A stretch of 58,797 nt of DNA. Origin: Synergistaceae bacterium (GTDB lineage: Bacteria; Synergistota; Synergistia; Synergistales; Synergistaceae). Below are positions 38,733-50,664 of the stretch, piece after piece. A program made the translations under genes and the position numbers. Each line of letters starts with the position of its first letter. Position 1 is the stretch's first letter. Location of the stretch: NCBI GenBank assembly GCA_031273805.1, contig JAISRE010000049.1, positions 1 through 58,797 of the forward strand, read 5' to 3'. The notes below the pieces were generated by a model. That model was not told the origin of the DNA, ran no database searches, and was given only the letters and a program-made list of their open reading frames with translations.

Positions 38733-39671
38733 TTGCTGGATATAAATATCAGGGAGGTTGACTTGCCCTCGTACAAGAAATTTTTCGGACAGTCCCTTCC
38801 CGCCATTTCCGAACACTACGCGCGTCGCAGCGCGGAAGAAAAACGAGGCTTTATACTGGGCGCTTTTTGTGGCGGACACGCGTGCGGAGTGCTCTCCGGC
38901 GGCGAGTTTGCGGACAGGGTTGGCTCCATCTCCCGTGTCGACACGGTCGGGGCGTACAGGCTTAGCGGAGTGTGCAAAGCGCTTGTGTCCAGCGCCTTGA
39001 ACCGTTTCAGGTCGCGCGGAGCTGAGTTCGCCGACACGAGTTGCGTCATCGGTTCCCCAGGCTGGGAAGCGATGGATTCATTCCTGCGAAAAACAGGGTT
39101 TGAAGAGACTGTATCCCAGACCTCGGTGCTCAATTACTGCAACTCCGAAACCGAAGCGGAACTCCGCAGATTCAGGGAGCATTTCGGCGACAGACTGACA
39201 GAGCGCCTTCTTCGCAGAGGATATCACATAACCTCGTTCAAGGACGCAACCGACGGAGACGTCGAGGCGCTGACGAAAGACGCGGAGAATATGACTGGAA
39301 TCCTGACGCGGTATCGGACGGACGGCAAAACGATAAGCCGCGCGAGCTTCATGGTTTATAAAAACGGAGAACCTGCGGCTTGCAGCGTGCTCTCGGAATT
39401 CGACGCGGGACGCACTACTGCTGTCGTTTCGGCATTGGCGTGCAGAGAGCGGTACAGGAAGACAGGCGCCGGATTGTGGCCCCTTTTCAGGAGCATCGAG
39501 GAGATATCGACCGGAAGAGGGTATGAATATAAAAAAGTAATCTACACCTTTCTGTCCGACAACACCGAGATGGCGAACCTGCAAAAATCTCCTCTCGTCC
39601 GCTTCAGCGGGCGGAGATCGTCGGTCACCCGTCTGTACCGGATGAAAATCACCGGAGGAAGTCTCCTGTGA
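38733..39671 (+). CDS. GNAT-family acetyltransferase-like protein, possibly two domains
   Basis: The 312-residue protein reads as one or two GNAT folds: an N-terminal half with GSISRVDTVGAYRLSGVCKALVSS, resembling the acetyl-CoA loop, and a C-terminal half with VVSALACRERYRKTGAGLWP, which has the motif A-like R-x-x-G-x-G/A pattern. The TTG start at 38733 follows AGGAGG at 7 bases. Its stop overlaps the next radical SAM gene (GTGA), so the two are coupled. In a RiPP locus it could acetylate the product or give self-protection; that is inference. Confidence 0.7.
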   Translation: MLDINIREVDLPSYKKFFGQSLPAISEHYARRSAEEKRGFILGAFCGGHACGVLSGGEFADRVGSISRVDTVGAYRLSGVCKALVSSALNRFRSRGAEFADTSCVIGSPGWEAMDSFLRKTGFEETVSQTSVLNYCNSETEAELRRFREHFGDRLTERLLRRGYHITSFKDATDGDVEALTKDAENMTGILTRYRTDGKTISRASFMVYKNGEPAACSVLSEFDAGRTTAVVSALACRERYRKTGAGLWPLFRSIEEISTGRGYEYKKVIYTFLSDNTEMANLQKSPLVRFSGRRSSVTRLYRMKITGGSLL

Positions 39672-41569
39672 TTTATCTCGTCGCAGCTCCATTTGCGATG
39701 ATCAGCTATCCGCATCTCGCCGCGCCTCTGTTGTCGTCGATATTGAAAGAGGGTGGGCTGCCGGTCAGGACTATCTATCTGAACTTTGACCTGGCGAAGA
39801 TGATGGGCGCCTTGAAATACGAAAACCTCGCCGGGAGCAGGGACCGGCAGAGCCTGAGGGAGTGGCTGTTCTCCGACGCCTTATGGGGGAAGGGGAAATC
39901 CGAAGAGGAGGACGCGGCGTTTTTGAACCTGGAGGCCGGCGACCTGGACGACGATGAGAAGGCTCGGATGCTCGATATGAAATACAGCGTCGTGCCGCGC
40001 TTCATGGCAGGCGTCATGGAGCGGTTCGAGACGATGCCCGACGTCAGCGTCGTCGGTTTTAGCTGCTTGTTCCAACTGCTCCCGCCGCTGGCGATCGGGC
40101 GCATGATCAAGGAAGCGCATCCGGCTGTGAAGCTGATCTACGGCGGTTCCGCCTTTCACGGGCAGATAGGCGAGGAACTCTTTGACAAGCTCGACTGGAT
40201 AGACGCGGTGTCTAACTCCGAGGCGGACGACGTGGCGCTGGAAGCGTTCACCAGAATATCGGAAGGAAGACCGATCGACGGGCTTCAGGGAATGATGTAC
40301 AGGGACAGGCGAAACGGGGCTGTATACAAAACCGAGGGCAGGCAGGTATCGCCCGAGGATATGAACAGGGCGCCGTACCCCGATTTCGACGATTACTTCG
40401 AATCGCTGCGCCAGAACTACGGAACAGACCTGGGCCCTCTCGCCGGAAAACTGCTGCCATTCGAGGGATCCAGAGGATGCTGGTGGTTCGAGCGAAGCCG
40501 GTGTAGATTCTGCGGCTTAAACGGAATCAGCAAGTCCTTCAGAGTCAAAGACCCGATCAAGGTGGCCGAAACGCTGAAACACTACAAAAACCGGTACGGC
40601 GTAAAGTATTTCGCGGCCTCCGATAACGTTATGCCCAATGAATTCCTGGACTCCTTTCTGCCGAGGCTCCGGGCGCTCAACCAACCGGGCGGGGCGGAAT
40701 CCGAACATCGGCCGTATAACGTATTCTACGAGGTGAAGACCACGTTTAGCCGTGAACAGGTAAAGCGCCTGGCCGAATCCGGCGTCGTCCTGGTTCAGGC
40801 CGGGATAGAGAGCCTGTCGGACAACCTGCTCAAGCAGATGAATAAAGGAGTCTCCGCAATTCAGAATATATTTTTCCTGAAGTGCGCAAGGCAGTATGGG
40901 TTATTCGTCATCTGGTACGTTCTGATGAAGATGTATGGCGAAACTCAGGAGGACTACGACGAGATGGCGGCACTGGCGCCCTATCTGGCGCATTTCTCCC
41001 CGCCGAGCATGTCCAGATCGTTTATTAAGTGCCATCGTTACAGCGCGTATCACAACGATTCGGAGCGCTATTTCGAGAAAATCGCGCCGGCGGCATTTTA
41101 TTCGGCGCTCTTCCCGGATTTTTTCGATCTGGACAAGCTTGCATATACGTTCGACGTGAAGTGGCGCGGCGTCCCGGACGCGACGGAGCGCTACGACGCT
41201 CTCTCCAAATGGTTGGAGCGATGGCGCGAACTCTGGGTTTCGAGGACAATCCCGGCGTTCTTCATGCGCGATACGGGAGACGGTTGTCTGTCGCTCTTCG
41301 ATTCGCGGGATGGGACGACAGAGACAAAGATAGACCTCGACAGCGACGAGAGCAAGATATACGGTATGCTGGACGATATAACCGCAATGAATTCCATTCT
41401 GGACAGGTCGTCGGAATTCTGTCCGCCGCACAGGACGGAGGTGATACTCGCTTCTTTCGTGGAATATGGATTTGCAGTGCGATTTGACAATCTCTTCCTC
41501 GGGCTTGCTAACAGGGAGGGATTTAAACAGTGGCCGCTGGACGAAAGGCTTCTTATGACGAACAGTTAA
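39668..41569 (+). CDS. RiPP maturation radical SAM protein, B12-binding type
   Basis: This 633-residue protein has an N-terminal Rossmann-like, cobalamin-binding type region (VSVVGFSCLFQLLPPLAIG and KLIYGGSAFHGQIGEEL) and a radical SAM core with EGSRGCWWFERSRCRFCGLNG, that is C-x7-C-x2-C. The RGCWW...CxFCGLNG signature is that of the RiPP maturation radical SAM C-methyltransferase family (rSAM type 1), whose known members accompany Nif11-type or nitrile-hydratase-type leader precursors. The C-terminal third is less conserved. It starts at a GTG overlapping the GNAT stop. It probably methylates a peptide made from the island. Confidence 0.85.
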   Translation: MIYLVAAPFAMISYPHLAAPLLSSILKEGGLPVRTIYLNFDLAKMMGALKYENLAGSRDRQSLREWLFSDALWGKGKSEEEDAAFLNLEAGDLDDDEKARMLDMKYSVVPRFMAGVMERFETMPDVSVVGFSCLFQLLPPLAIGRMIKEAHPAVKLIYGGSAFHGQIGEELFDKLDWIDAVSNSEADDVALEAFTRISEGRPIDGLQGMMYRDRRNGAVYKTEGRQVSPEDMNRAPYPDFDDYFESLRQNYGTDLGPLAGKLLPFEGSRGCWWFERSRCRFCGLNGISKSFRVKDPIKVAETLKHYKNRYGVKYFAASDNVMPNEFLDSFLPRLRALNQPGGAESEHRPYNVFYEVKTTFSREQVKRLAESGVVLVQAGIESLSDNLLKQMNKGVSAIQNIFFLKCARQYGLFVIWYVLMKMYGETQEDYDEMAALAPYLAHFSPPSMSRSFIKCHRYSAYHNDSERYFEKIAPAAFYSALFPDFFDLDKLAYTFDVKWRGVPDATERYDALSKWLERWRELWVSRTIPAFFMRDTGDGCLSLFDSRDGTTETKIDLDSDESKIYGMLDDITAMNSILDRSSEFCPPHRTEVILASFVEYGFAVRFDNLFLGLANREGFKQWPLDERLLMTNS

Positions 41570-41581
41570 GGGAGTGTTGTT

Positions 41582-43303
41582 ATGAGTTATAGTAATCGTC
41601 GTCACAATGAAATGAGAGTTCTGCTCTTTGCGGTGATGCTCGCGTTTCTGGCTGTGTTTGCGAATTCGCAGGCATCAATCGCCGATTCGGCTGCAGAACC
41701 GAAATTGGAACTTCTGCCTGTCAACCCCAAATATGTCGAATATTGGGAGAAGGTCCGGGCGGGAGAGCGCCCAAGCGGATTGGCGCCCAGTCCCATCGAC
41801 TGGTCCATACTGAAAAAAGAGGGGGCCGCCAGGAGGAGAGCGAGGGCAGCCGTGGACTTGCCGTCCGCCTACGACCTCGTAGCCGAGGGCGTGACGCCTC
41901 CCGTGCTGAATCAGCGCAACTGGGGAACATGCTGGTCGTTTGCCGCGATAGAGGCGATAGAGGCAGGCGTTATGTCTGCGGACAAAACCAACGGCACGAA
42001 AAACCACGTGGCGCTTTCGGAGCTGCATCTGGCCTATTACGCTTATGTGGATGAGGTCCCGGACAAACCCGCTTTCACCGGGAATCCAAACCCTTTTGAA
42101 AATGATGGCAAAACACCGCGCAATGTCATTTTCGACAACGGCGGAATCACCGAACTGGTGACCGCCCTTTTGTCCCGAGGCACAGGCCCTCTGGCAGAGG
42201 CGGTCGCTCCCTATCCAGACCACATCCCCGATGATCTCGGCGCGTGGGCCGCGTATGTACCCAACCCAGCGCCGCCCAAGGGCCCCGCTCAGTTTCGCCT
42301 GAAGAACGCCTACTATTTCTGGGATGATCCGGAGGATATCAAGTCTGCGCTGATGAAGTTCGGCGCTCTTTCATTCTCGTTCGGCTACTATGTCGGAATG
42401 GTCTCCGGAGACAGCATCTACACGCCGGATGCGAGAAACTCGAACCATAGGGTTCTGCTGGTCGGGTGGGACGACAATTACCCGAAAGAGGCGTTCGGAC
42501 CGTACCAGCCTGAAAACGACGGAGCGTGGAAATTACAGAACAGTTGGGGGCCGCGCGCTGGAACGGATGGTTTCTATTGGATATCTTACGAGGACGCGAC
42601 GCTATTCGGAGCAGAAGTCGGCAATCTGTACGCTCTTCCTGCCGCTTTTGAGATGATGCCCGCCGACGCCTACGACGATGACGGAATATACTTTCACGAT
42701 CCTCTGGGGACGAGCGGTTTTATCAGCGCCACCGACGCCGCGTACGACACCTTTACGGCCGCAAACGCTTTTACCGCGAGACGGGACGAAAAGATCACGT
42801 ACATCGGCTTCATGACGGGCCAGGATGAGCAGGACTGCGAGATACAGATCTACCGCGACATCCCGGACGGGAGCTCTCCCGACAAAGGTAAGGCCGTTTT
42901 CGCCGCTCCCCTGCCCTACCGTGTGACCGACGGCGGAGGATATGTCTCCGTAAAACTGGACGACCCGGTTCCAATCAGGAAGGGCGAGCGCTTTGCCGTG
43001 GCCGTGACGTTCAAGCGACCGGTCGGCGACAGGCGCCTGGCAGTCCCTATCGAGCAGATGCTGGAGGGACTTTGGGAAAAGGCCTCCATTAACCAAATGG
43101 AGAGTTATTACCTGTGGGGAAACGAGTGGCGAGACATCTACTATGAGACAGACCCGAAGGGCAATTTCTGCGTGAAGGCGTTCACCGCGCCGTCGCCCGC
43201 TCCGGACGATGGCGGCGGCTGCGACTCCTTTTCCGTCGGCCTATTCGGAATTGCCGGAGTAGCGTTGCTCATGTTCGGAAGGAAGAACAAAAAAAGCTCA
43301 TAA
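41582..43303 (+). CDS. Secreted C1-family (papain-like) peptidase with lectin-like domain and CTERM-like signal
   Basis: An exported cysteine protease of 573 residues. A signal sequence (VLLFAVMLAFLAVFANSQAS) precedes a pro-region and a papain-like domain with Gln-Asn loop NQRNWGTCWSFAAIEA (Cys117), SNHRVLLVGWDDNY (His289) and LQNSWGPRAGTDGFYWISY (Asn320). A lectin-like beta domain follows (ITYIGFMTGQDEQDCEIQIY) and then a GGGC patch, a hydrophobic run and basic end, a Synergist-CTERM-like signal. In a RiPP island it is the only candidate leader protease here, but its export makes a general or defensive role equally possible. It begins 12 bases after the radical SAM gene. Confidence 0.85.
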   Translation: MSYSNRRHNEMRVLLFAVMLAFLAVFANSQASIADSAAEPKLELLPVNPKYVEYWEKVRAGERPSGLAPSPIDWSILKKEGAARRRARAAVDLPSAYDLVAEGVTPPVLNQRNWGTCWSFAAIEAIEAGVMSADKTNGTKNHVALSELHLAYYAYVDEVPDKPAFTGNPNPFENDGKTPRNVIFDNGGITELVTALLSRGTGPLAEAVAPYPDHIPDDLGAWAAYVPNPAPPKGPAQFRLKNAYYFWDDPEDIKSALMKFGALSFSFGYYVGMVSGDSIYTPDARNSNHRVLLVGWDDNYPKEAFGPYQPENDGAWKLQNSWGPRAGTDGFYWISYEDATLFGAEVGNLYALPAAFEMMPADAYDDDGIYFHDPLGTSGFISATDAAYDTFTAANAFTARRDEKITYIGFMTGQDEQDCEIQIYRDIPDGSSPDKGKAVFAAPLPYRVTDGGGYVSVKLDDPVPIRKGERFAVAVTFKRPVGDRRLAVPIEQMLEGLWEKASINQMESYYLWGNEWRDIYYETDPKGNFCVKAFTAPSPAPDDGGGCDSFSVGLFGIAGVALLMFGRKNKKSS

Positions 43304-43979: not shown

Positions 43980-45383
43980 ATGATGCATCTCCAAGTGTTA
44001 TGGCTCGATGATGGGCAGTGTGTCCTTTTTAACGTTCCCGACAAACGCATCTCGGGAAGGGCGCCCGCGTTCGTCGGGAGAGTTGCGGAAAAAATCGTGG
44101 ACGGAAAAGACTTAACGGCGGCGATTGCCGAGGAGTCAGTCGATCCCGACATGCGCCGCAGGATCGTCGATCTGCTGACGTACATCGGTGGAGAACGTTC
44201 TTCGGTACGCACTGAGCCTTTCGGAAGAAACGAAAAGCGATTCGGCAATGTATTGGCCCTGTGCCCTTCCACCAAATGTAACTTGCGCTGCATGTACTGT
44301 TCCGGCAATGCCGGAAACTGCTCGGACACGCTGATGGATTGGGATTTGGCAAAAACCGCGATAGATTATTACTTCGCCCACGCTAGAGAGAAAGACGCGT
44401 ATGTGCTGCAGTTTCACGGAGGAGGCGAGCCGATGCTCAACATGGGCGTAATCAAAAAATCAATAGATTACGCGCGCTCCATCGCGGAGGGAAAAGGAGG
44501 ACGGCTCACGACGAAAATATCCACAAACGGTTATTTTTCACCCGATACCGCGCGGTGGGCAGCTGACACGTTTAACGACGTAAGCCTGTCACTGGACGGG
44601 CCTCCGGACATTCACGACAGACAGAGGCCGACGATGAACGGCAAGGGCAGTTATGACGTTGCTTGCCGCACGCTGCGCATACTGGAGGAAAAGGGCGTGC
44701 ATCTGCGCATCAACACGGTGATAACCAATTATGGAATAGATCGCATGGAGGAGATAATCGGGCACATACGATCCGTCACGCGCACGACGGAACTCAGGCT
44801 TTTGCCGATGGAGTATTGCGGACGCTGCGCGGAGTCCGGCGCTTCCCCACTGGATTTTGAGAGGTACGCCCTCAATCTCGAAGAACTTTTGCCGGCGGCG
44901 CTGTCTTTGGACTTCGATCTTCTGGATGTACTCGAAAACGCTGATTATTATACCGACGGACATTATTGCCGGGCCTGCGGATATGTGATGTGCGTAGCGC
45001 CGCACGGGAGAATAAGCACATGCATCGAGGTCATGGACGAGGCGTCAGGTGTGGATGATCTGCTGATCGGTCGCTATGACGGAGAAAAAATCGTCATCGA
45101 CTGGAACGCTGTTTTCAGGCTTCGGGACAGGACGTATCATAACCTGGAACCCTGCAAGAAATGCGCTTTCCGGAGCAATTGTTCAGGAAACTGTCTCGTG
45201 CGGGCGGGACGCAAAAACGGGACTGTCATGTCCGTCGATCCCGACGCCTGCGCGATGACGAAAAAAGCTCTCACAAAATATTTCGCCAATGTGGCTGATT
45301 CGCTTGAAGACTTCGTGGGAACAGAGTGTTTTCCATTCACTCCTGGCTACATGCTCGGCGGGGCTTCTCCGGACGGTCGTTGA
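43980..45383 (+). CDS. SPASM-domain radical SAM peptide maturase (island enzyme 2)
   Basis: Residues about 1-85 are a leader-recognition-like N-terminal part; the radical SAM motif STKCNLRCMYC (Cys 100, 104, 107) follows, and a SPASM domain with CRACGYVMCVAPHGRISTC and CKKCAFRSNCSGNCLVRAGR gives auxiliary-cluster Cys. SPASM enzymes of this kind make thioether, C-C or other crosslinks in RiPP cores. GAGG lies about 11 bases before the ATG. The Nif11-type precursor with the GG site starts 83 bases downstream, so that peptide is the likely substrate (inference). Confidence 0.82.
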   Translation: MMHLQVLWLDDGQCVLFNVPDKRISGRAPAFVGRVAEKIVDGKDLTAAIAEESVDPDMRRRIVDLLTYIGGERSSVRTEPFGRNEKRFGNVLALCPSTKCNLRCMYCSGNAGNCSDTLMDWDLAKTAIDYYFAHAREKDAYVLQFHGGGEPMLNMGVIKKSIDYARSIAEGKGGRLTTKISTNGYFSPDTARWAADTFNDVSLSLDGPPDIHDRQRPTMNGKGSYDVACRTLRILEEKGVHLRINTVITNYGIDRMEEIIGHIRSVTRTTELRLLPMEYCGRCAESGASPLDFERYALNLEELLPAALSLDFDLLDVLENADYYTDGHYCRACGYVMCVAPHGRISTCIEVMDEASGVDDLLIGRYDGEKIVIDWNAVFRLRDRTYHNLEPCKKCAFRSNCSGNCLVRAGRKNGTVMSVDPDACAMTKKALTKYFANVADSLEDFVGTECFPFTPGYMLGGASPDGR

Positions 45384-45409
45384 AAAGTCAATCACGGATA
45401 TGATATTAT
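45380..45409 (+). promoter_or_regulatory. Candidate promoter of the Nif11-type precursor
   Basis: TTGAAA (45380-45385), 18 bases, TATTAT (45404-45409) stand 58 bases before the precursor ATG. The -35 box overlaps the stop of the preceding radical SAM gene. Confidence 0.5.
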
Positions 45410-45466
45410 AAAGTAACTTGATGTACGTATTATGATAGACAACACAATAAGGAGAGTGTGGAAACA

Positions 45467-45727
45467 ATGAGCAAGCTGGCAGACTTTTACAAGAAGGCGG
45501 AAAGCGACGACGCGCTCAAGGAGGCGTTGAAAAAGGCAAACATTAAGGCCAAAGAGGAGAATATCACCGCGTTGATCAAGGTAGCTGGTGAATTCGGCAT
45601 TTCTCTGGATCGCAATGACTTCGGCGATCTCGACGAGGACGATCTCAAAGCGGTGGCGGGCGGATGGTACGGCGAGCCTCGATGCAGCGGGACATGTAAG
45701 GAGGCTGGACAACAATATTATCGCTGA
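45467..45727 (+). CDS. Nif11-type RiPP precursor with GG site and two-Cys core
   Basis: The 86-residue peptide has a Nif11 leader (MSKLADFYKKAESDDALKEA, then KEENITALIKVAGEFGISL), an acidic helix (LDEDDLKAVAGG, Gly-Gly at 65-66) and a 20-residue core beginning WYGEP and containing Cys 73 and Cys 77 (RCSGTC). The core ends in QQYYR. AAGGAGAG precedes the ATG at 45467 by 10 bases, which favours it over the GTG at 45458. SPASM radical SAM genes flank it on both sides. I infer a modified peptide with one crosslink or small ring. Confidence 0.8.
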   Translation: MSKLADFYKKAESDDALKEALKKANIKAKEENITALIKVAGEFGISLDRNDFGDLDEDDLKAVAGGWYGEPRCSGTCKEAGQQYYR

Positions 45728-45923
45728 TGTTTCGGCGACTCTCTACGCGAATCTGACGCTTGACGAGTACTTCCATGTGCTTAAATCGCTTACCCGACTT
45801 CCTGTCGGTCGCAGATTCGTTCCGCGCTACGCGCCGAGAACAACGCGTTCGCCGAAACATCGGCACTTGAGCCGAGCTAATAGTCATAACAATATTTGAC
45901 GCCGAAACGCGAAGGGAGAAATA

Positions 45924-46145
45924 ATGGGCAGACTGGGAGATTTTTATCGCAAAGCCTCGAGCGACGAGAATTTACGGATAGCTTTGGACGAAGCGAATCA
46001 GGATGCGAAGGAAAATAATATAACCGCGCTGATTGAAGTCGCGCGTAATTTCGGAGTGGAACTTGACCACAGTGACTTTGATCTGCGCCTTGGCGAGGAC
46101 GCGGAGCGCGCGTTAAAACGAGGCTGGTCTCGCCGGGAATTCTGA
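45924..46145 (+). CDS. Degenerate Nif11-type peptide lacking GG site and core
   Basis: The 73-residue product is clearly a paralogue of the precursor at 45467: MGRLGDFYRKASSDENLRIA, KENNITALIEVARNFGVELD. Where that peptide has AVAGGWYGEP, this one reads LKRGWSRREF and ends, with no Gly-Gly and no Cys. It could be a leader-only decoy, an activator of the radical SAM enzyme in trans, or a decayed gene. GCGAAGGGAG precedes its ATG. The next radical SAM gene starts 7 bases after it. Confidence 0.65.
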   Translation: MGRLGDFYRKASSDENLRIALDEANQDAKENNITALIEVARNFGVELDHSDFDLRLGEDAERALKRGWSRREF

Positions 46146-46152
46146 GGCCGGT

Positions 46153-47616
46153 TTGTACGTTCAGTTAGGCGAAGAATATATGCTGCGGGGATGGAAAGAC
46201 CTTCCCTTCGTGATGGTCAACTCCACGACGGGGGAGGAGACGGTTCTTCCCGGCGAAGGTTTGACGGTACTATTGGAGGGCGAGGTGGACAGCGCTCTGG
46301 TATTGCTCACCCCTTCCGAAAGGCTTTTTCTCGACTCGCTTGTCGGCAGCGGGCGCTGTAGTTTTCTCGATCGACCGAGCCCTCTTCCAAACAGAAAAAA
46401 GTACAGGAGGAGCGAGGGCGTCCGCATAACCGAAGTCTGCTGGTCAATCACCGGAAAGTGCAATCTGCGGTGCAGACATTGTTATATGGGCGCCCCGGAG
46501 CAGAGATACAAGGACCTCGAGACCGAAGACTGCCTGGGGCTGATCCGACAGATGGCGGCAGCCAACGTCACCAGAGTTTCGCTCACCGGAGGGGAACCTT
46601 TGCTTCGCCCTGATTTTTGGCGTTTGGTCGACGCTGCGGAGGACGAGGGAATAAGAGTATCAAGTGTCCTCACCAACGGTGTCTTGCTGGACGAAGCTTT
46701 CTTCATGAACATGAGAAGAAGGAATTTGTCCTTTGGCATCCTCATAAGCTATGACGGCCTGGGCTGCCATGACTGGATGCGCGGAGTCGACGGGACCGAG
46801 AAAAAAGCCATAGAGGCGATAAAACTGGCCCGAAGCTTCGGGCACAATGTGACCGTCAATATGATGTTGCACAACGATAATTTAGAAACTCTGATCCGGA
46901 CATACGAACTGTTGATTGATCTGGGTATACAGGCAATGCGGGTATCGACCGTCGACGACGCTGGGTGCTGGCGAAAATACGGCAGCGGGCCGATCCCGCC
47001 GGAGCGTTTATTTGAGGAGTATTTGAAACTGGTTCGGCGCTTTGTGGAGGACGGTCACCCGTGTGCGTTGCAGTTGAGCAAGTTTTATCACGGTTCGCCG
47101 ACGGACGGGGATAAAATTATTTGCGTGCTTGGAAACGGAGAAAAAAACTTAGATTCGTCGGCATGTCCTTATATGCGCGAACATCCCTGTCTTATGCCCA
47201 ACGGGCGCTTGCTGCCGTGTCCGAGTTTTTCGGATACGCATGTGGAACAAAATATGCCGAATCTGCTCGAAGTTCCTCTTGCAAGCATATACAGCAATCC
47301 GGAGGGATATTTTTGGGAGGTCGCAGATACGAAACTCGCGGATGTTGTGGAGCGCGACGGAGAGTGCGTTGACTGCCCTCACAAATTCGAGTGCGGAGGG
47401 GGAGCGTGCCGAGCCGGCGCCGCGATTCAATGCGGAGATTTCAGGGGAAGCGACAAACTCGTGTGCGGATTCTTCAAGGATGGATGGAGACGACGACTGG
47501 AATCCGTAATCTATGGCTGCGCCGAGGGTTTTAACAGGATATTGGGAAAAGGCCTCCATGAACCCAAGGGAGAGTTATTACCTGTGGAGAAACGAGTGGC
47601 GAGACATCTACTATGA
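46153..47616 (+). CDS. SPASM-type radical SAM enzyme (island enzyme 3), C terminus replaced
   Basis: A leader-binding-like N terminus (YMLRGWKDLPFVMVNSTTG) is followed by the radical SAM motif ITGKCNLRCRHCYMG (Cys 103, 107, 110), GGEPLLRPDFW and a SPASM region: CLMPNGRLLPCPSF, CVDCPHKFECGGGACRAGA, CGFF. It resembles heme d1/PqqE-like peptide-modifying enzymes. The frame runs on past codon 460 into DNA homologous to the C1 peptidase gene but read in a different phase (after about 47540), so the last 25 residues or so are not native. The SPASM core is complete, so it may still be active. The TTG at 46153 is needed to include the conserved YMLRGW part; an ATG at 46180 is an alternative. Confidence 0.8.
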   Translation: MYVQLGEEYMLRGWKDLPFVMVNSTTGEETVLPGEGLTVLLEGEVDSALVLLTPSERLFLDSLVGSGRCSFLDRPSPLPNRKKYRRSEGVRITEVCWSITGKCNLRCRHCYMGAPEQRYKDLETEDCLGLIRQMAAANVTRVSLTGGEPLLRPDFWRLVDAAEDEGIRVSSVLTNGVLLDEAFFMNMRRRNLSFGILISYDGLGCHDWMRGVDGTEKKAIEAIKLARSFGHNVTVNMMLHNDNLETLIRTYELLIDLGIQAMRVSTVDDAGCWRKYGSGPIPPERLFEEYLKLVRRFVEDGHPCALQLSKFYHGSPTDGDKIICVLGNGEKNLDSSACPYMREHPCLMPNGRLLPCPSFSDTHVEQNMPNLLEVPLASIYSNPEGYFWEVADTKLADVVERDGECVDCPHKFECGGGACRAGAAIQCGDFRGSDKLVCGFFKDGWRRRLESVIYGCAEGFNRILGKGLHEPKGELLPVEKRVARHLL

Positions 47617-47782
47617 GACGGACCCGAAGGGCAACTTCTGCGTCAAGGCGTTTACCGCGCCGTCACCCGCGCCGGACAACGGAAGCGGCGGCGGGGGCGG
47701 CGGATGCTCCGTTTCATTAGGCTTGTTCGGATTTGCCGGAGTAGTGCTCCTTATACTAGGGAGTAAGAACAAAAGTTTATAA
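47540..47782 (+). pseudogene. 3' fragment of a second C1 peptidase gene with CTERM-like end
   Basis: From about 47540 the DNA follows the 3' part of the peptidase gene (43073-43303) closely: YWEKASMNPRESYYLWRNEW, YYETDPKGNFCVKAFTAPS, then a Gly-rich patch, hydrophobic run (LGLFGFAGVVLLIL) and a short basic end. The rest of the protease is missing. The fragment overlaps the end of the radical SAM gene in another frame. It is the product of a duplication and deletion; only the sorting-signal end is left. Confidence 0.8.
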
Positions 47783-47885: not shown

Positions 47886-48533
47886 ATGAAGTTCGTCAAT
47901 TTAATCGGCAAGTCGCAGTCGGCAGTGTACGCGGAATTTTTCACGGAACCTGAGTTCAAGGGCAACGCTAAGAAGCTCCACAGAGGAGAATACGGCGAGA
48001 ACGCGGTCGGCGTCTCCAGAGTGAAGTCGGTCAAGGTCTCGGACTTCGCGACGGTCACGTTTTACGAGACGCCGGACGGCCCCGGAAAGAGCGCCGCTTT
48101 CACCTCCGACGCGGCGGAAGTCAAACTCGGCTTCACCCCAAGTTTCGTAACGGTGGAGAGCCACGTGAAGGGCTGGAAGAACGGCGTGTTGTCGGCGACT
48201 CTCACAACTGGGGAATACGAGGTCTCCGAGATCAAGAAGTTCGACAGGGTATCGGTCCCGAGGGGGACATACCTAGTTTTTCTGGGGTCCGTGTCCGACC
48301 CCAACTCCGTGCACCTTTTCGAGAACGAGGACTACACGGTTGACGCCAGGATAGACGGCTACAAGAGAGTCGCGATCTTTCCGCTCGACAATGACGACGT
48401 AAGGCTGAATTTTAAACTTAGCTCCTCTCTCTCCGACGACGATCTTCTCGCGGTGGCCGGAGGAGTGTGCCTCAAGAACACCTGCGGGGCTAAGGCTTGC
48501 GCCGCAGACAGTCCTTGCGGCATCAATGCCTGA
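47886..48533 (+). CDS. Putative RiPP precursor 1: beta/gamma-crystallin-like leader with Cys-rich core
   Basis: Residues about 10-92 read as two beta/gamma-crystallin Greek-key units: VYAEFFTEPEFKGNAKKLHR with GEY and, after a VKSVKV strand, TVTFYETPDGPGKSAAFTSD. Residues about 100-168 look like a second, more diverged pair (LTTGEYEVSEIKKFDRVSVP, then GTYLVFLGS). The calcium N/D-N/D-x-x-S/T-S motifs are not conserved. An acidic helix and junction LSDDDLLAVAGG (Gly-Gly 192-193) then precede a 22-residue core with Cys at 195, 200, 205 and 211 (CLKNTCGAKACAAD). GGAGG lies 9 bases before the ATG. The same junction as in the Nif11-type peptide supports precursor status; the leader is unusually large. 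The function is an inference. Confidence 0.75.
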   Translation: MKFVNLIGKSQSAVYAEFFTEPEFKGNAKKLHRGEYGENAVGVSRVKSVKVSDFATVTFYETPDGPGKSAAFTSDAAEVKLGFTPSFVTVESHVKGWKNGVLSATLTTGEYEVSEIKKFDRVSVPRGTYLVFLGSVSDPNSVHLFENEDYTVDARIDGYKRVAIFPLDNDDVRLNFKLSSSLSDDDLLAVAGGVCLKNTCGAKACAADSPCGINA

Positions 48534-48586: not shown

Positions 48587-49297
48587 GTGAAGTTCGTCAT
48601 ATTGAACGACGGCGGCAAGATGTCGATTCTCGCGAATTTTTTCGAGAAACCTGATTACGAGGGAGATGGGCAGGATATGCCGCTCGGTCGTTACAACAGG
48701 GAGCAGTTTCACATCAAGACGATAGGTTCCGTCAAACTCAAGGAGAACGTGACGCTAGCCGTGTACGAAAACCCTGACAGGAGCGGCAGAGTGCTCTTAT
48801 TGAGCGAGGATGTCCCCGATCTGTCCAAATCACTCCCGTTCACGCCGTCCGTCTTCACTCTCGCGCACAGCGTCGGCGCATATGAGGGCGAGGTCAAAAA
48901 GGACAACCTGGTACCCGGCGTTTACAACGCGGCGTCGCTCAGGGGGTTTGGCAGGCTGCGGATACCGGAGGAGACAAGGGTTACATTCTGGTCGGGAGAG
49001 GGGAACGACCCCGGCGAGTCGGGGCGTTCGTTCGAAAAGGGAGACCTCGTTTTGGATGAAGGCATGCGCGCGTACGACAAGTTCGCCATCATCCCGATCC
49101 TCTCCGGCGAAGCCGCGCGGCAGGCCGGAGAATCCGGCGAGCTCTCTGACGAAGAACTGCTTTCCGTGGCCGGAGGAGAATGTAAAGCTATGGCGTGTGC
49201 CGCTGCGGCGTGCGCCGCCGATATGTGCTCCGTTGATGCGTGCGCGGCAAAGGCGTGCGCGGTGAACGCATTTCCGTTTCTTCCGATAAGCCCTTGA
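48587..49297 (+). CDS. Putative RiPP precursor 2: beta/gamma-crystallin-like leader with six Cys at five-residue intervals
   Basis: A paralogue of the preceding gene (both begin MKFV). Greek-key units are clearest at residues 13-38 (SILANFFEKPDYEGDGQDMP) and 54-80 (NVTLAVYENPDRSGRVLLLS), followed by a more diverged pair (to about 170). The junction ELSDEELLSVAGG (Gly-Gly 196-197) precedes a 39-residue core with Cys 199, 204, 209, 214, 219 and 224, each followed by four mostly Ala residues (for example CAADM, CSVDA), and a Cys-free tail (AFPFLPISP). The GTG start has AAAGGAGGG 7 bases upstream. The stop overlaps the TTG of the SPASM enzyme downstream. Confidence 0.78.
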   Translation: MKFVILNDGGKMSILANFFEKPDYEGDGQDMPLGRYNREQFHIKTIGSVKLKENVTLAVYENPDRSGRVLLLSEDVPDLSKSLPFTPSVFTLAHSVGAYEGEVKKDNLVPGVYNAASLRGFGRLRIPEETRVTFWSGEGNDPGESGRSFEKGDLVLDEGMRAYDKFAIIPILSGEAARQAGESGELSDEELLSVAGGECKAMACAAAACAADMCSVDACAAKACAVNAFPFLPISP

Positions 49298-50664
49298 GAC
49301 TGTCCGCGTACAGACCGTCCCGTTATAATTTTTTCGTTCCGCTCAAGGACGATTTCACCCTTGCATATAACAGCCTGGGAAATTCTCTCGCGGTATGGGA
49401 CGAATACGACAGAAAAGTATACGATATCCTGTGCTGCGGCGGCGATCGGGAGACGGCGACGGAGACCGTCGGCAACGACAGGTATCTCGATTCGATCCTG
49501 AAAGATCTCAAAAAAGGATCGTTTATCATCGAAAAAAAGACCGACGAGAGGGAGAAGATCGACGAGGCGGTCAAATTGCTGCGCTTCGGCAGAGAACAAC
49601 TGACGCTCACCATCGCCCCGACGCTCAAATGCAACTTCGGCTGCGACTACTGTTATCAAGGCAATGATAGGACCGGGCGCATGACCGATTCGGTGCGCGA
49701 CGCCCTGGTCGGTTTCGTGGAGCGCGCCTCGCATGACATCAAGTCGCTCGGGGTCGCGTGGTACGGCGGCGAGCCTCTGCTCGAGCCGGACATCGTGGAG
49801 CGTCTGTCCGAAAGATTCATCGCGTTATGCGGCGAACGGAACATCTCGTACAGCGCTATGATGGTGACAAACGGCTTCCTTCTGACGAAGGAGACCTCGG
49901 ACATCTTCAAGAGGTGCAGGATCTCGTCAGTCCAGGTGACGCTTGACGGAGACAGACCGGTTCACGACACGAGGAGAATATTGCTGGGCGGAGGGCCGAC
50001 CTTCGATAGGATAATCGGAAACCTGGCCGATGTGACGTCCTCCAACGAGGAATTGCACATATCCATAAGGGTGAACGTAGACCGGAGGAACTGCGATTCC
50101 ATAGAAGCGTTGATCGACCGCATGTGCGCCGAGGGGCTAAACAAGCGGAAAAACCTGTCTATGTATTTCGCGCCTGTGGATGTCTGTTCGAGCGAGTGTC
50201 TCAAAATAGCGGACAACGTGATGCCGATGCAGGAATACGCAGCTTTGGAGGCCGAACTGGCGAGGCTCGCGACCGAGCGCGGCATGTACTTCCCCTCCAT
50301 GCCGAACCGGGCGTTCAGCCTGTGCGCGGCCGTCAAGCCGAACGGCTTCGTCATTCTGCCGAACGGGGACATCCATAAATGCTGGAATACCGTGTCGAAC
50401 TCATCTCAAAGCCTGTGCCGCATCGACGAAATCGACTGCGTTTGGGACTCTCCGCTTCAGCGGGAGTGGCTGGAGCACGAACTGTTCAGTATGCCTGAGT
50501 GCGATGACTGCGAAGCTCTGGCAAACTGCGCCGGAGGGTGCGCGAACAAGGCCATGATGGGATACGCAAATCCTTGTATTAGCCTTAAGTACAACATGGA
50601 GAAAATGCTCGCGCTGTACGCGGTCTCAAAGGGAGCGATAAAGCCGGAGGACGTGCTCGTATAA
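49294..50664 (+). CDS. SPASM-domain radical SAM maturase of the crystallin-leader cassette (island enzyme 4)
   Basis: The N terminus (RLSAYRPSRYNFFVPL, then LAYNSLGNSLAVWDEYD) is typical for SPASM enzymes of the Cys-rich peptide thioether group. The radical SAM motif is TLKCNFGCDYCYQG (Cys 113, 117, 120 from this start), WYGGEPLLEPDI follows, and the SPASM Cys occur in SLCAAVKPNGFVILPNGDI with HKCW and in CDDCEALANCAGGCANK. The start is taken as the TTG at 49294, inside the stop codon of precursor 2 (TTGA), which matches the conserved N terminus; an upstream in-frame ATG overlaps the precursor by 58 bases. I infer that it modifies both crystallin-leader precursors. Confidence 0.85.
   Translation: MRLSAYRPSRYNFFVPLKDDFTLAYNSLGNSLAVWDEYDRKVYDILCCGGDRETATETVGNDRYLDSILKDLKKGSFIIEKKTDEREKIDEAVKLLRFGREQLTLTIAPTLKCNFGCDYCYQGNDRTGRMTDSVRDALVGFVERASHDIKSLGVAWYGGEPLLEPDIVERLSERFIALCGERNISYSAMMVTNGFLLTKETSDIFKRCRISSVQVTLDGDRPVHDTRRILLGGGPTFDRIIGNLADVTSSNEELHISIRVNVDRRNCDSIEALIDRMCAEGLNKRKNLSMYFAPVDVCSSECLKIADNVMPMQEYAALEAELARLATERGMYFPSMPNRAFSLCAAVKPNGFVILPNGDIHKCWNTVSNSSQSLCRIDEIDCVWDSPLQREWLEHELFSMPECDDCEALANCAGGCANKAMMGYANPCISLKYNMEKMLALYAVSKGAIKPEDVLV

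What the first reader, a model, noticed from the sequence alone, without database searches (positions are those of the whole stretch)
49178..49294. Core with six cysteines at an exact five-residue period
Seen: Cys 199, 204, 209, 214, 219 and 224 of precursor 2, each followed by four mostly Ala residues, directly after VAGG; precursor 1 has the same rhythm for three Cys and then 5+1. Exact spacing of five with small residues fits repeated Cys-to-backbone thioethers (sactipeptide or ranthipeptide logic). Two units have Asp three residues after Cys (CAAD, CSVD). The bond type is an inference.
Basis: partly seen in the sequence, partly recalled or inferred. Interest (0 to 1): 0.82.

Follow-up and report, generated by a model that had tools for sequence, protein, structure and literature searches.

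The report
Crystallin-led peptide, cysteine every fifth residue
A bacterium encodes a peptide with a cysteine at exactly every fifth position, carried behind an eye-lens-like (crystallin) protein domain and next to two radical enzymes that probably cross-link and methylate it; the same five-step cysteine pattern recurs beside the same enzyme in many distant bacteria and an archaeon, so the pattern is real, but its chemistry and purpose are still untested.

Summary
In detail: Cys 199-224 of the 236-aa ORF 48587-49297 sit at an exact period of five (chance about 4e-6). It is conserved. Three relatives keep the same six-slot register without indels. Around relatives of the adjacent SPASM radical SAM enzyme, 15 of 17 loci from about ten phyla have a neighbouring protein with a Cys-every-fifth array; the two exceptions are a contig end and an insertion in the target gene. 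NCBIfam already names this rhythm (CefA, NF038108; maturase TIGR04463), but I found no paper on it. What I could not find described: the leader carries a betagamma-crystallin fold (probably two domains) ending in a Nif11-like LSDEELxxVAGG tail. In other phyla the array is fused to crystallin, ricin-type, tectonin or fascin modules. A B12-dependent radical SAM C-methyltransferase usually accompanies it. Within arrays, loss of a Cys goes with loss of the polar residue at +3 of the same unit only, which fits an intra-unit Cys-to-(+3) contact, possibly a thioether. Bond type, methylation, cleavage and function are unproven. Verdict: a real RiPP-type system, a new variant of a known but uncharacterised kind.

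The parts
48587..49297 (+). Precursor 2: 236-aa ORF (GTG start, AAAGGAGGG upstream) with crystallin leader and Cys-every-fifth core
48587..49114 (+). Leader body of precursor 2: betagamma-crystallin domain (residues about 14-95) and a second all-beta, probably crystallin-like domain (about 96-172)
   Evidence: AF2 block pLDDT 60-94 over residues 11-170; Foldseek betaB2-crystallin E 6e-7 over the chain; VIA Z 12.3, rmsd 2.1, 82 residues to 3hzb for residues 14-95; leader profile vs Protein S E 8.8e-11; domain 2 alone has no sequence hit
49142..49177 (+). LSDEELLSVAGG: Nif11/double-glycine-type leader end, predicted cleavage site
   Evidence: sequence; strongly conserved in 9 relatives; same tail in Nif11 precursors
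49178..49294 (+). Core: six Cys at exact period five, then a conserved N-x-x-P-x-x-P-type end
47886..48533 (+). Precursor 1: paralogue with the same crystallin leader and a CxxxxCGAKACAADSPC core (spacings 5, 5, 6); close forms in L007, L017 and L026
49294..50664 (+). SPASM radical SAM maturase, best family TIGR04463 (426 bits, below its 525 cut-off); likely TTG start overlapping the precursor 2 stop (TTGA)
39668..41569 (+). B12-binding radical SAM C-methyltransferase (TIGR03975, 505 bits, above cut-off), conserved cassette member
38733..39671 (+). GNAT-like protein overlapping the methyltransferase start; a protein of similar size lies in the L017 and L026 cassettes (BLAST match only to L026)

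Best explanation
A RiPP-type cassette. Two precursors (pre1, pre2) carry a betagamma-crystallin leader that ends in a Nif11-like LSDEELxxVAGG tail. The adjacent SPASM radical SAM enzyme (TIGR04463-like) works along the pentapeptide core and modifies each Cys, most likely by a thioether to a residue of the same five-residue unit (best guess the +3 position). The B12 radical SAM enzyme 39668-41569 probably adds C-methyl groups. The leader is then cut after GG, probably by the C39-peptidase transporter encoded elsewhere in the genome, releasing a short modified peptide. In other phyla the same array stays fused to carbohydrate-binding-type modules, so a common theme may be a lectin-guided or surface-bound modified tail. 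Shown: precursor anatomy, conservation of the period, co-segregation with the enzyme, co-location of the methyltransferase, the crystallin fold model. Inferred: bond type, methylation, cleavage, export, function.
For: Exact register kept in L007, L017 and L026. Arrays beside 15 of 17 loci of relatives of this enzyme and 0 of 8 outgroup rows; array rows lie on one side of a branch, support 88/90. The exceptions are explained: L020 target gene interrupted by an insertion; L029 contig end, with a pre1 start visible. SPASM motifs complete in all 18. B12 radical SAM beside 10 of the other loci plus the window, none beside L033-L042. Missing-Cys units keep the register (spacings 10, 15) and lose D/E/N/Q at +3 (7/40 vs 98/183, stratified p 1e-4) but not at -2 or +8. 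Closest solved enzyme is 5wgg (CteB, by own knowledge), E 4e-20. C39 transporter next to the cassette in L026 and near L025, and a 42%-identical one in the own genome, contig C111.
Against: No mass data. 46% of Cys units lack D/E/N/Q at +3, so one fixed Cys-Asp chemistry cannot cover all. The +3 test was chosen after looking at the data. No C39 transporter or peptidase next to the precursors in the window. The window enzyme scores below the TIGR04463 cut-off and the core below the CefA cut-off.
Confidence: 0.68

Rival explanations
1. The radical SAM enzyme makes a non-thioether change (for example epimerisation or C-C cross-links) and the Cys stay free, as metal ligands or as disulfides along a repeat.
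For: Bond type is untested; many units have only Ala/Gly around Cys and offer no special acceptor; hydrophobic residues at +2 when Cys is lost (24/40 vs 25/183) would fit packing in a fold.
Against: Characterised relatives by profile or structure (SCIFF maturase, PapB) form Cys thioethers (PMC9413430); the array is the conserved feature that tracks the enzyme.
Confidence: 0.2
2. The array is an ordinary structural repeat, such as a pentapeptide-repeat beta-helix, and the enzyme's neighbourhood is incidental.
For: Period five with consensus C-G/A-A-D/N/A-A resembles the spacing of pentapeptide repeats.
Against: No Pfam pentapeptide match; AF2 leaves a 171-aa array unstructured, pLDDT 37; array and enzyme co-segregate over many phyla.
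Confidence: 0.05
3. The crystallin part is not a removable leader: the precursors remain full-length, sugar- or calcium-binding proteins with a modified tail, as the long relatives suggest.
For: Most long homologues lack a VAGG tail and join the array to crystallin/lectin modules directly or by Gly-rich linkers; no peptidase of C39 type in the cassette here.
Against: The LSDEELxxVAGG tail is among the best-conserved parts of the leader; C39 transporters lie by L026 and L025, whose precursors carry the same type of tail.
Confidence: 0.25

Closest known systems
NCBIfam NF038108/NF038107, 'Cys-every-fifth RiPP' CefA and its maturase CefB
   Same: Cys at every fifth residue with Ala/Gly-rich units; pre2 core matches CefA positions 33-64 of 65; the long arrays of L019, L021, L022, L023, L024, L031 and L038 exceed the CefA cut-off.
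   Different: pre2 23.7 bits, pre1 12.8, cut-off 30; the maturase scores 211 against the CefB cut-off 600; the 65-position CefA model matches only the tail and core, not the crystallin leader.
TIGR04463 family radical SAM/SPASM RiPP maturase (rSAM_vs_C_rich)
   Same: Full-length best match, 426 bits; L019, L020, L022, L024 and L028 exceed the cut-off and sit beside a Cys-every-fifth array or, in L020, an interrupted gene.
   Different: The window enzyme and its Synergistota/Bacillota clade fall below the 525 cut-off (396-426) and form their own branch (100/99).
Ranthipeptides: PapA/PapB (freyrasin), SCIFF and its maturase
   Same: SPASM radical SAM enzyme; several Cys, with acidic or amide residues at fixed distance.
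   Different: PapA uses Cys-X3-Asp/Glu (PMC9413430); here the tied position is +3 (Cys-X2), polar in only about half of the units; PapB model 108 bits against a cut-off of 340.
Nif11-type leader RiPPs
   Same: LSDEELxxVAGG-type tail.
   Different: The body of the leader is betagamma-crystallin, not the Nif11 domain; no Nif11 Pfam match to pre1 or pre2.
Myxococcus Protein S and bacterial betagamma-crystallins
   Same: Leader fold and sequence profile.
   Different: Those are not fused to a Cys array or paired with radical SAM enzymes (own knowledge).

Membership tests
CefA (NF038108) | Score above the curated cut-off of 30 bits | tested here: not met
   23.7 bits for pre2, 12.8 for pre1
CefA (NF038108) | Cys every fifth residue in an Ala/Gly-rich core | tested here: met
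TIGR04463 maturase | Score above the curated cut-off of 525 bits | tested here: not met
   426.2 bits, full length 1-438
TIGR04463 maturase | Common branch with cut-off-passing members that neighbour Cys-rich arrays | tested here: met
   tree, 88/90; arrays; scores of members
Radical SAM/SPASM RiPP maturase | CX3CX2C and complete SPASM cysteines | tested here: met
   CNFGCDYC, C..GDIHKC, CDDCEALANCAGGC and a last Cys
Ranthipeptide | Thioether from Cys to a non-alpha carbon | not testable with these tools
   needs mass spectrometry or NMR
Sactipeptide | Thioether from Cys to an alpha carbon | not testable with these tools
   needs mass spectrometry or NMR
Betagamma-crystallin (leader, first domain) | Greek-key crystallin fold | tested here: met
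   residues 14-95: Z 12.3; profile vs Protein S 8.8e-11
Betagamma-crystallin (leader, second domain) | Second crystallin domain, residues about 96-172 | tested here: inconclusive
   whole-chain Foldseek alignment but no sequence match on its own
Nif11-leader precursor | Nif11 domain in the leader | tested here: not met
   no Nif11 match for pre1 or pre2; only the GG tail resembles it

The most novel reading that the evidence does not exclude
A wide class of proteins in which interchangeable carbohydrate-binding-type modules (crystallin, ricin, tectonin, fascin, mannose-lectin) carry a pentapeptide tail of up to about 45 Cys that is cross-linked unit by unit (Cys to the +3 residue, a Cys-X2 ring) by one SPASM enzyme and C-methylated by a B12 radical SAM enzyme; the window holds a trimmed version in which crystallin domains serve as a cleavable RiPP leader.
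Probability: 0.3. Interest if true: 0.82.

Novelty: new variant of a known kind. Interest (0 to 1): 0.64.

Why it matters
If right, it gives a folded eye-lens-type domain as RiPP leader, a substrate with one modification per exact five-residue step that makes stepwise cross-linking by a SPASM enzyme directly testable, and a link between radical peptide chemistry and lectin-type modules in bacteria and a methanogenic archaeon. The related arrays of 5 to 45 Cys are ready-made substrates of graded length.

Tried and rejected
A scan of genome contigs with the two precursors found nothing; the enzyme alignment worked instead. NF038108 hits in L011-L015 of other Synergistota were looked at and dropped: simple repeats or reading frames inside other genes. 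G096/L005 is a crystallin protein without a Cys core. A pentapeptide beta-helix was tested by AF2 on the L038 array and not supported, though modification is not modelled. The second leader domain alone gave no sequence match. Literature searches for TIGR04463, 'Cys-every-fifth', and crystallin or beta-trefoil with radical SAM RiPPs found no paper on this system; only open-licence papers are held, so this is not proof of absence.

Full report
Observation. ORF 48587-49297 encodes 236 aa ending VAGG-E-CKAMA-CAAAA-CAADM-CSVDA-CAAKA-CAVNAFPFLPISP. The six Cys lie at 199, 204, 209, 214, 219 and 224. For 6 Cys in 39 residues, exact period five has chance 4e-6. Precursor 1 (47886-48533) has spacings 5, 5, 6. 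The two are paralogues, 33% identical over their length.

Conservation of the period. Relatives of precursor 2 occur in G159/L007 (CKAAV CGGQA CASDM GLFDA CGGKA CGINVIPITPVSP), in L017 (DKANA CGAQA CGADL CGAQA CGAQA CGVNVVPLMPIGP) and in the Bacillota contig L026 (CFFNS CDAQA CAADL CAVQA CPGNA CVTNMIPVVGLI). With the window, all six slots align without indels; 22 of 24 slots are Cys. Precursor 1 relatives keep C-x4-C-x4-C-x5-C or a near form. Codon differences against L017 are 10/10/22 by position, so selection acts on the protein.

A wide family. A scan of genome contigs with the neighbouring enzyme gave 26 loci. Beside 15 of the 17 closest (L018 is the same contig as L007) lies a protein with a Cys-every-fifth array, from 5 to about 45 Cys, often ending CAxDIIPIIPGI. 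Lineages include Synergistota, Bacillota, Cyanobacteriota, Myxococcota, Pseudomonadota, Actinomycetota, Verrucomicrobiota, Chloroflexota, Bacteroidota and the archaeon Methanothrix. In the Bacteroidota (L030, L032) the spacing is mostly ten. L020 has its target gene broken by an insertion (resolvase- and transposase-like genes follow). L029 ends at the contig end, where the start of precursor 1 is seen. In a tree the array rows, with these two, lie on one side of a branch (88/90); eight more distant enzymes have no array in reach.

Upstream modules. Pfam finds Crystall, RicinB_lectin, Tectonin, Fascin or B_lectin modules in L019, L021, L022, L023, L030, L031 and L038. The window leaders show only weak Pfam crystallin matches, but a profile of nine leaders matches Protein S at 8.8e-11, and the AF2 model matches crystallins: Foldseek E 6e-7 over the chain, with low TM-scores since the two halves are placed differently, and Z 12.3 for residues 14-95. 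The second domain is likely the same fold but not shown on its own. By tblastn the window leaders also match the crystallin modules of L022 and L038. The core is unstructured in the model.

Enzymes. The maturase 49294-50664 has intact CX3CX2C and SPASM motifs, as do all 17 relatives. Best family is TIGR04463, 426 bits, under the cut-off. The TTG start would overlap the precursor 2 stop (inference). A B12 radical SAM C-methyltransferase (TIGR03975; 39668-41569) is a cassette partner: it lies by L007, L017, L019, L021, L022 (two), L023, L025, L026, L029 (two) and L038, and by none of L033-L042. In the window it is separated from the precursors by about 6.3 kb that hold a papain-type protease and a second, Nif11-type cassette.

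Covariation inside arrays. In units that lost the Cys (register kept), the D/E/N/Q at +3 of the same unit drops to 7/40 from 98/183, while -2 (17/40 vs 88/183) and +8 are unchanged; a hydrophobic residue appears at +2 (24/40 vs 25/183). Shuffling within loci gives p of 1e-4 and under 5e-5 (pooled counts). The positions were picked after inspection, so this is a lead. It suggests that the Cys acts together with the residue three after it. PapB links Cys-X3-Asp and tolerates n = 0-6 (PMC9413430).

Processing. The tail LSDEELxxVAGG recurs in Nif11 precursors. C39 transporters are next to the cassette in L026 and near L025. The own genome has one on contig C111 with HlyD- and TolC-like neighbours and another Nif11-like precursor; it is 42% identical to that of L026. 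Cleavage here is an inference.

Known or new. The rhythm has an NCBIfam name, Cys-every-fifth CefA, so the period itself is not new. No paper was found on it in the held library. The crystallin leader, the lectin-array fusions, the pairing with the B12 enzyme and the Cys/+3 coupling were not found described.

Verdict. Observation confirmed; thioether reading plausible, unproven; new variant of a known, uncharacterised kind.

Noticed in passing
window 43980-47616: A second RiPP cassette: two Nif11-type precursors (45458-45727 with a CSGTC core; 45924-46145 with almost no core) and two radical SAM/SPASM-like enzymes.
   Followed up: partly
window 41582-43303 and 47513-47782: The C-terminal part of the papain-type protease is duplicated 4 kb on (73% identical over 83 aa), and the last 25 aa of the radical SAM protein 46153-47616 match protease DNA in another frame (84%): the Nif11 cassette seems to sit between two copies of the protease end, interrupting the older methyltransferase-precursor cassette.
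   Followed up: partly
L020 9480-12061: In Microseira wollei the lectin-type gene beside the maturase is interrupted after its N-terminal part by a resolvase/transposase element resembling IS607 (by eye).
   Followed up: partly
L061 552-785 and 5841-14199 (own genome contig C111): C39-peptidase ABC transporter pair with HlyD- and TolC-like genes near a further Nif11-like precursor ending AVAGGISWVLTKAYLITR.
   Followed up: partly
L030 6832-7755, L032 48-983: In Bacteroidota the arrays use mostly ten-residue spacing; in L030 they follow a mannose-lectin domain that also matches the lectin-like bacteriocin model NF033557 (51 bits, below cut-off).
   Followed up: no
L026 5050-5472: A small secreted protein resembling chagasin-type protease inhibitors lies between the C39 transporters and the methyltransferase (recognised by eye, not tested).
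   Followed up: no
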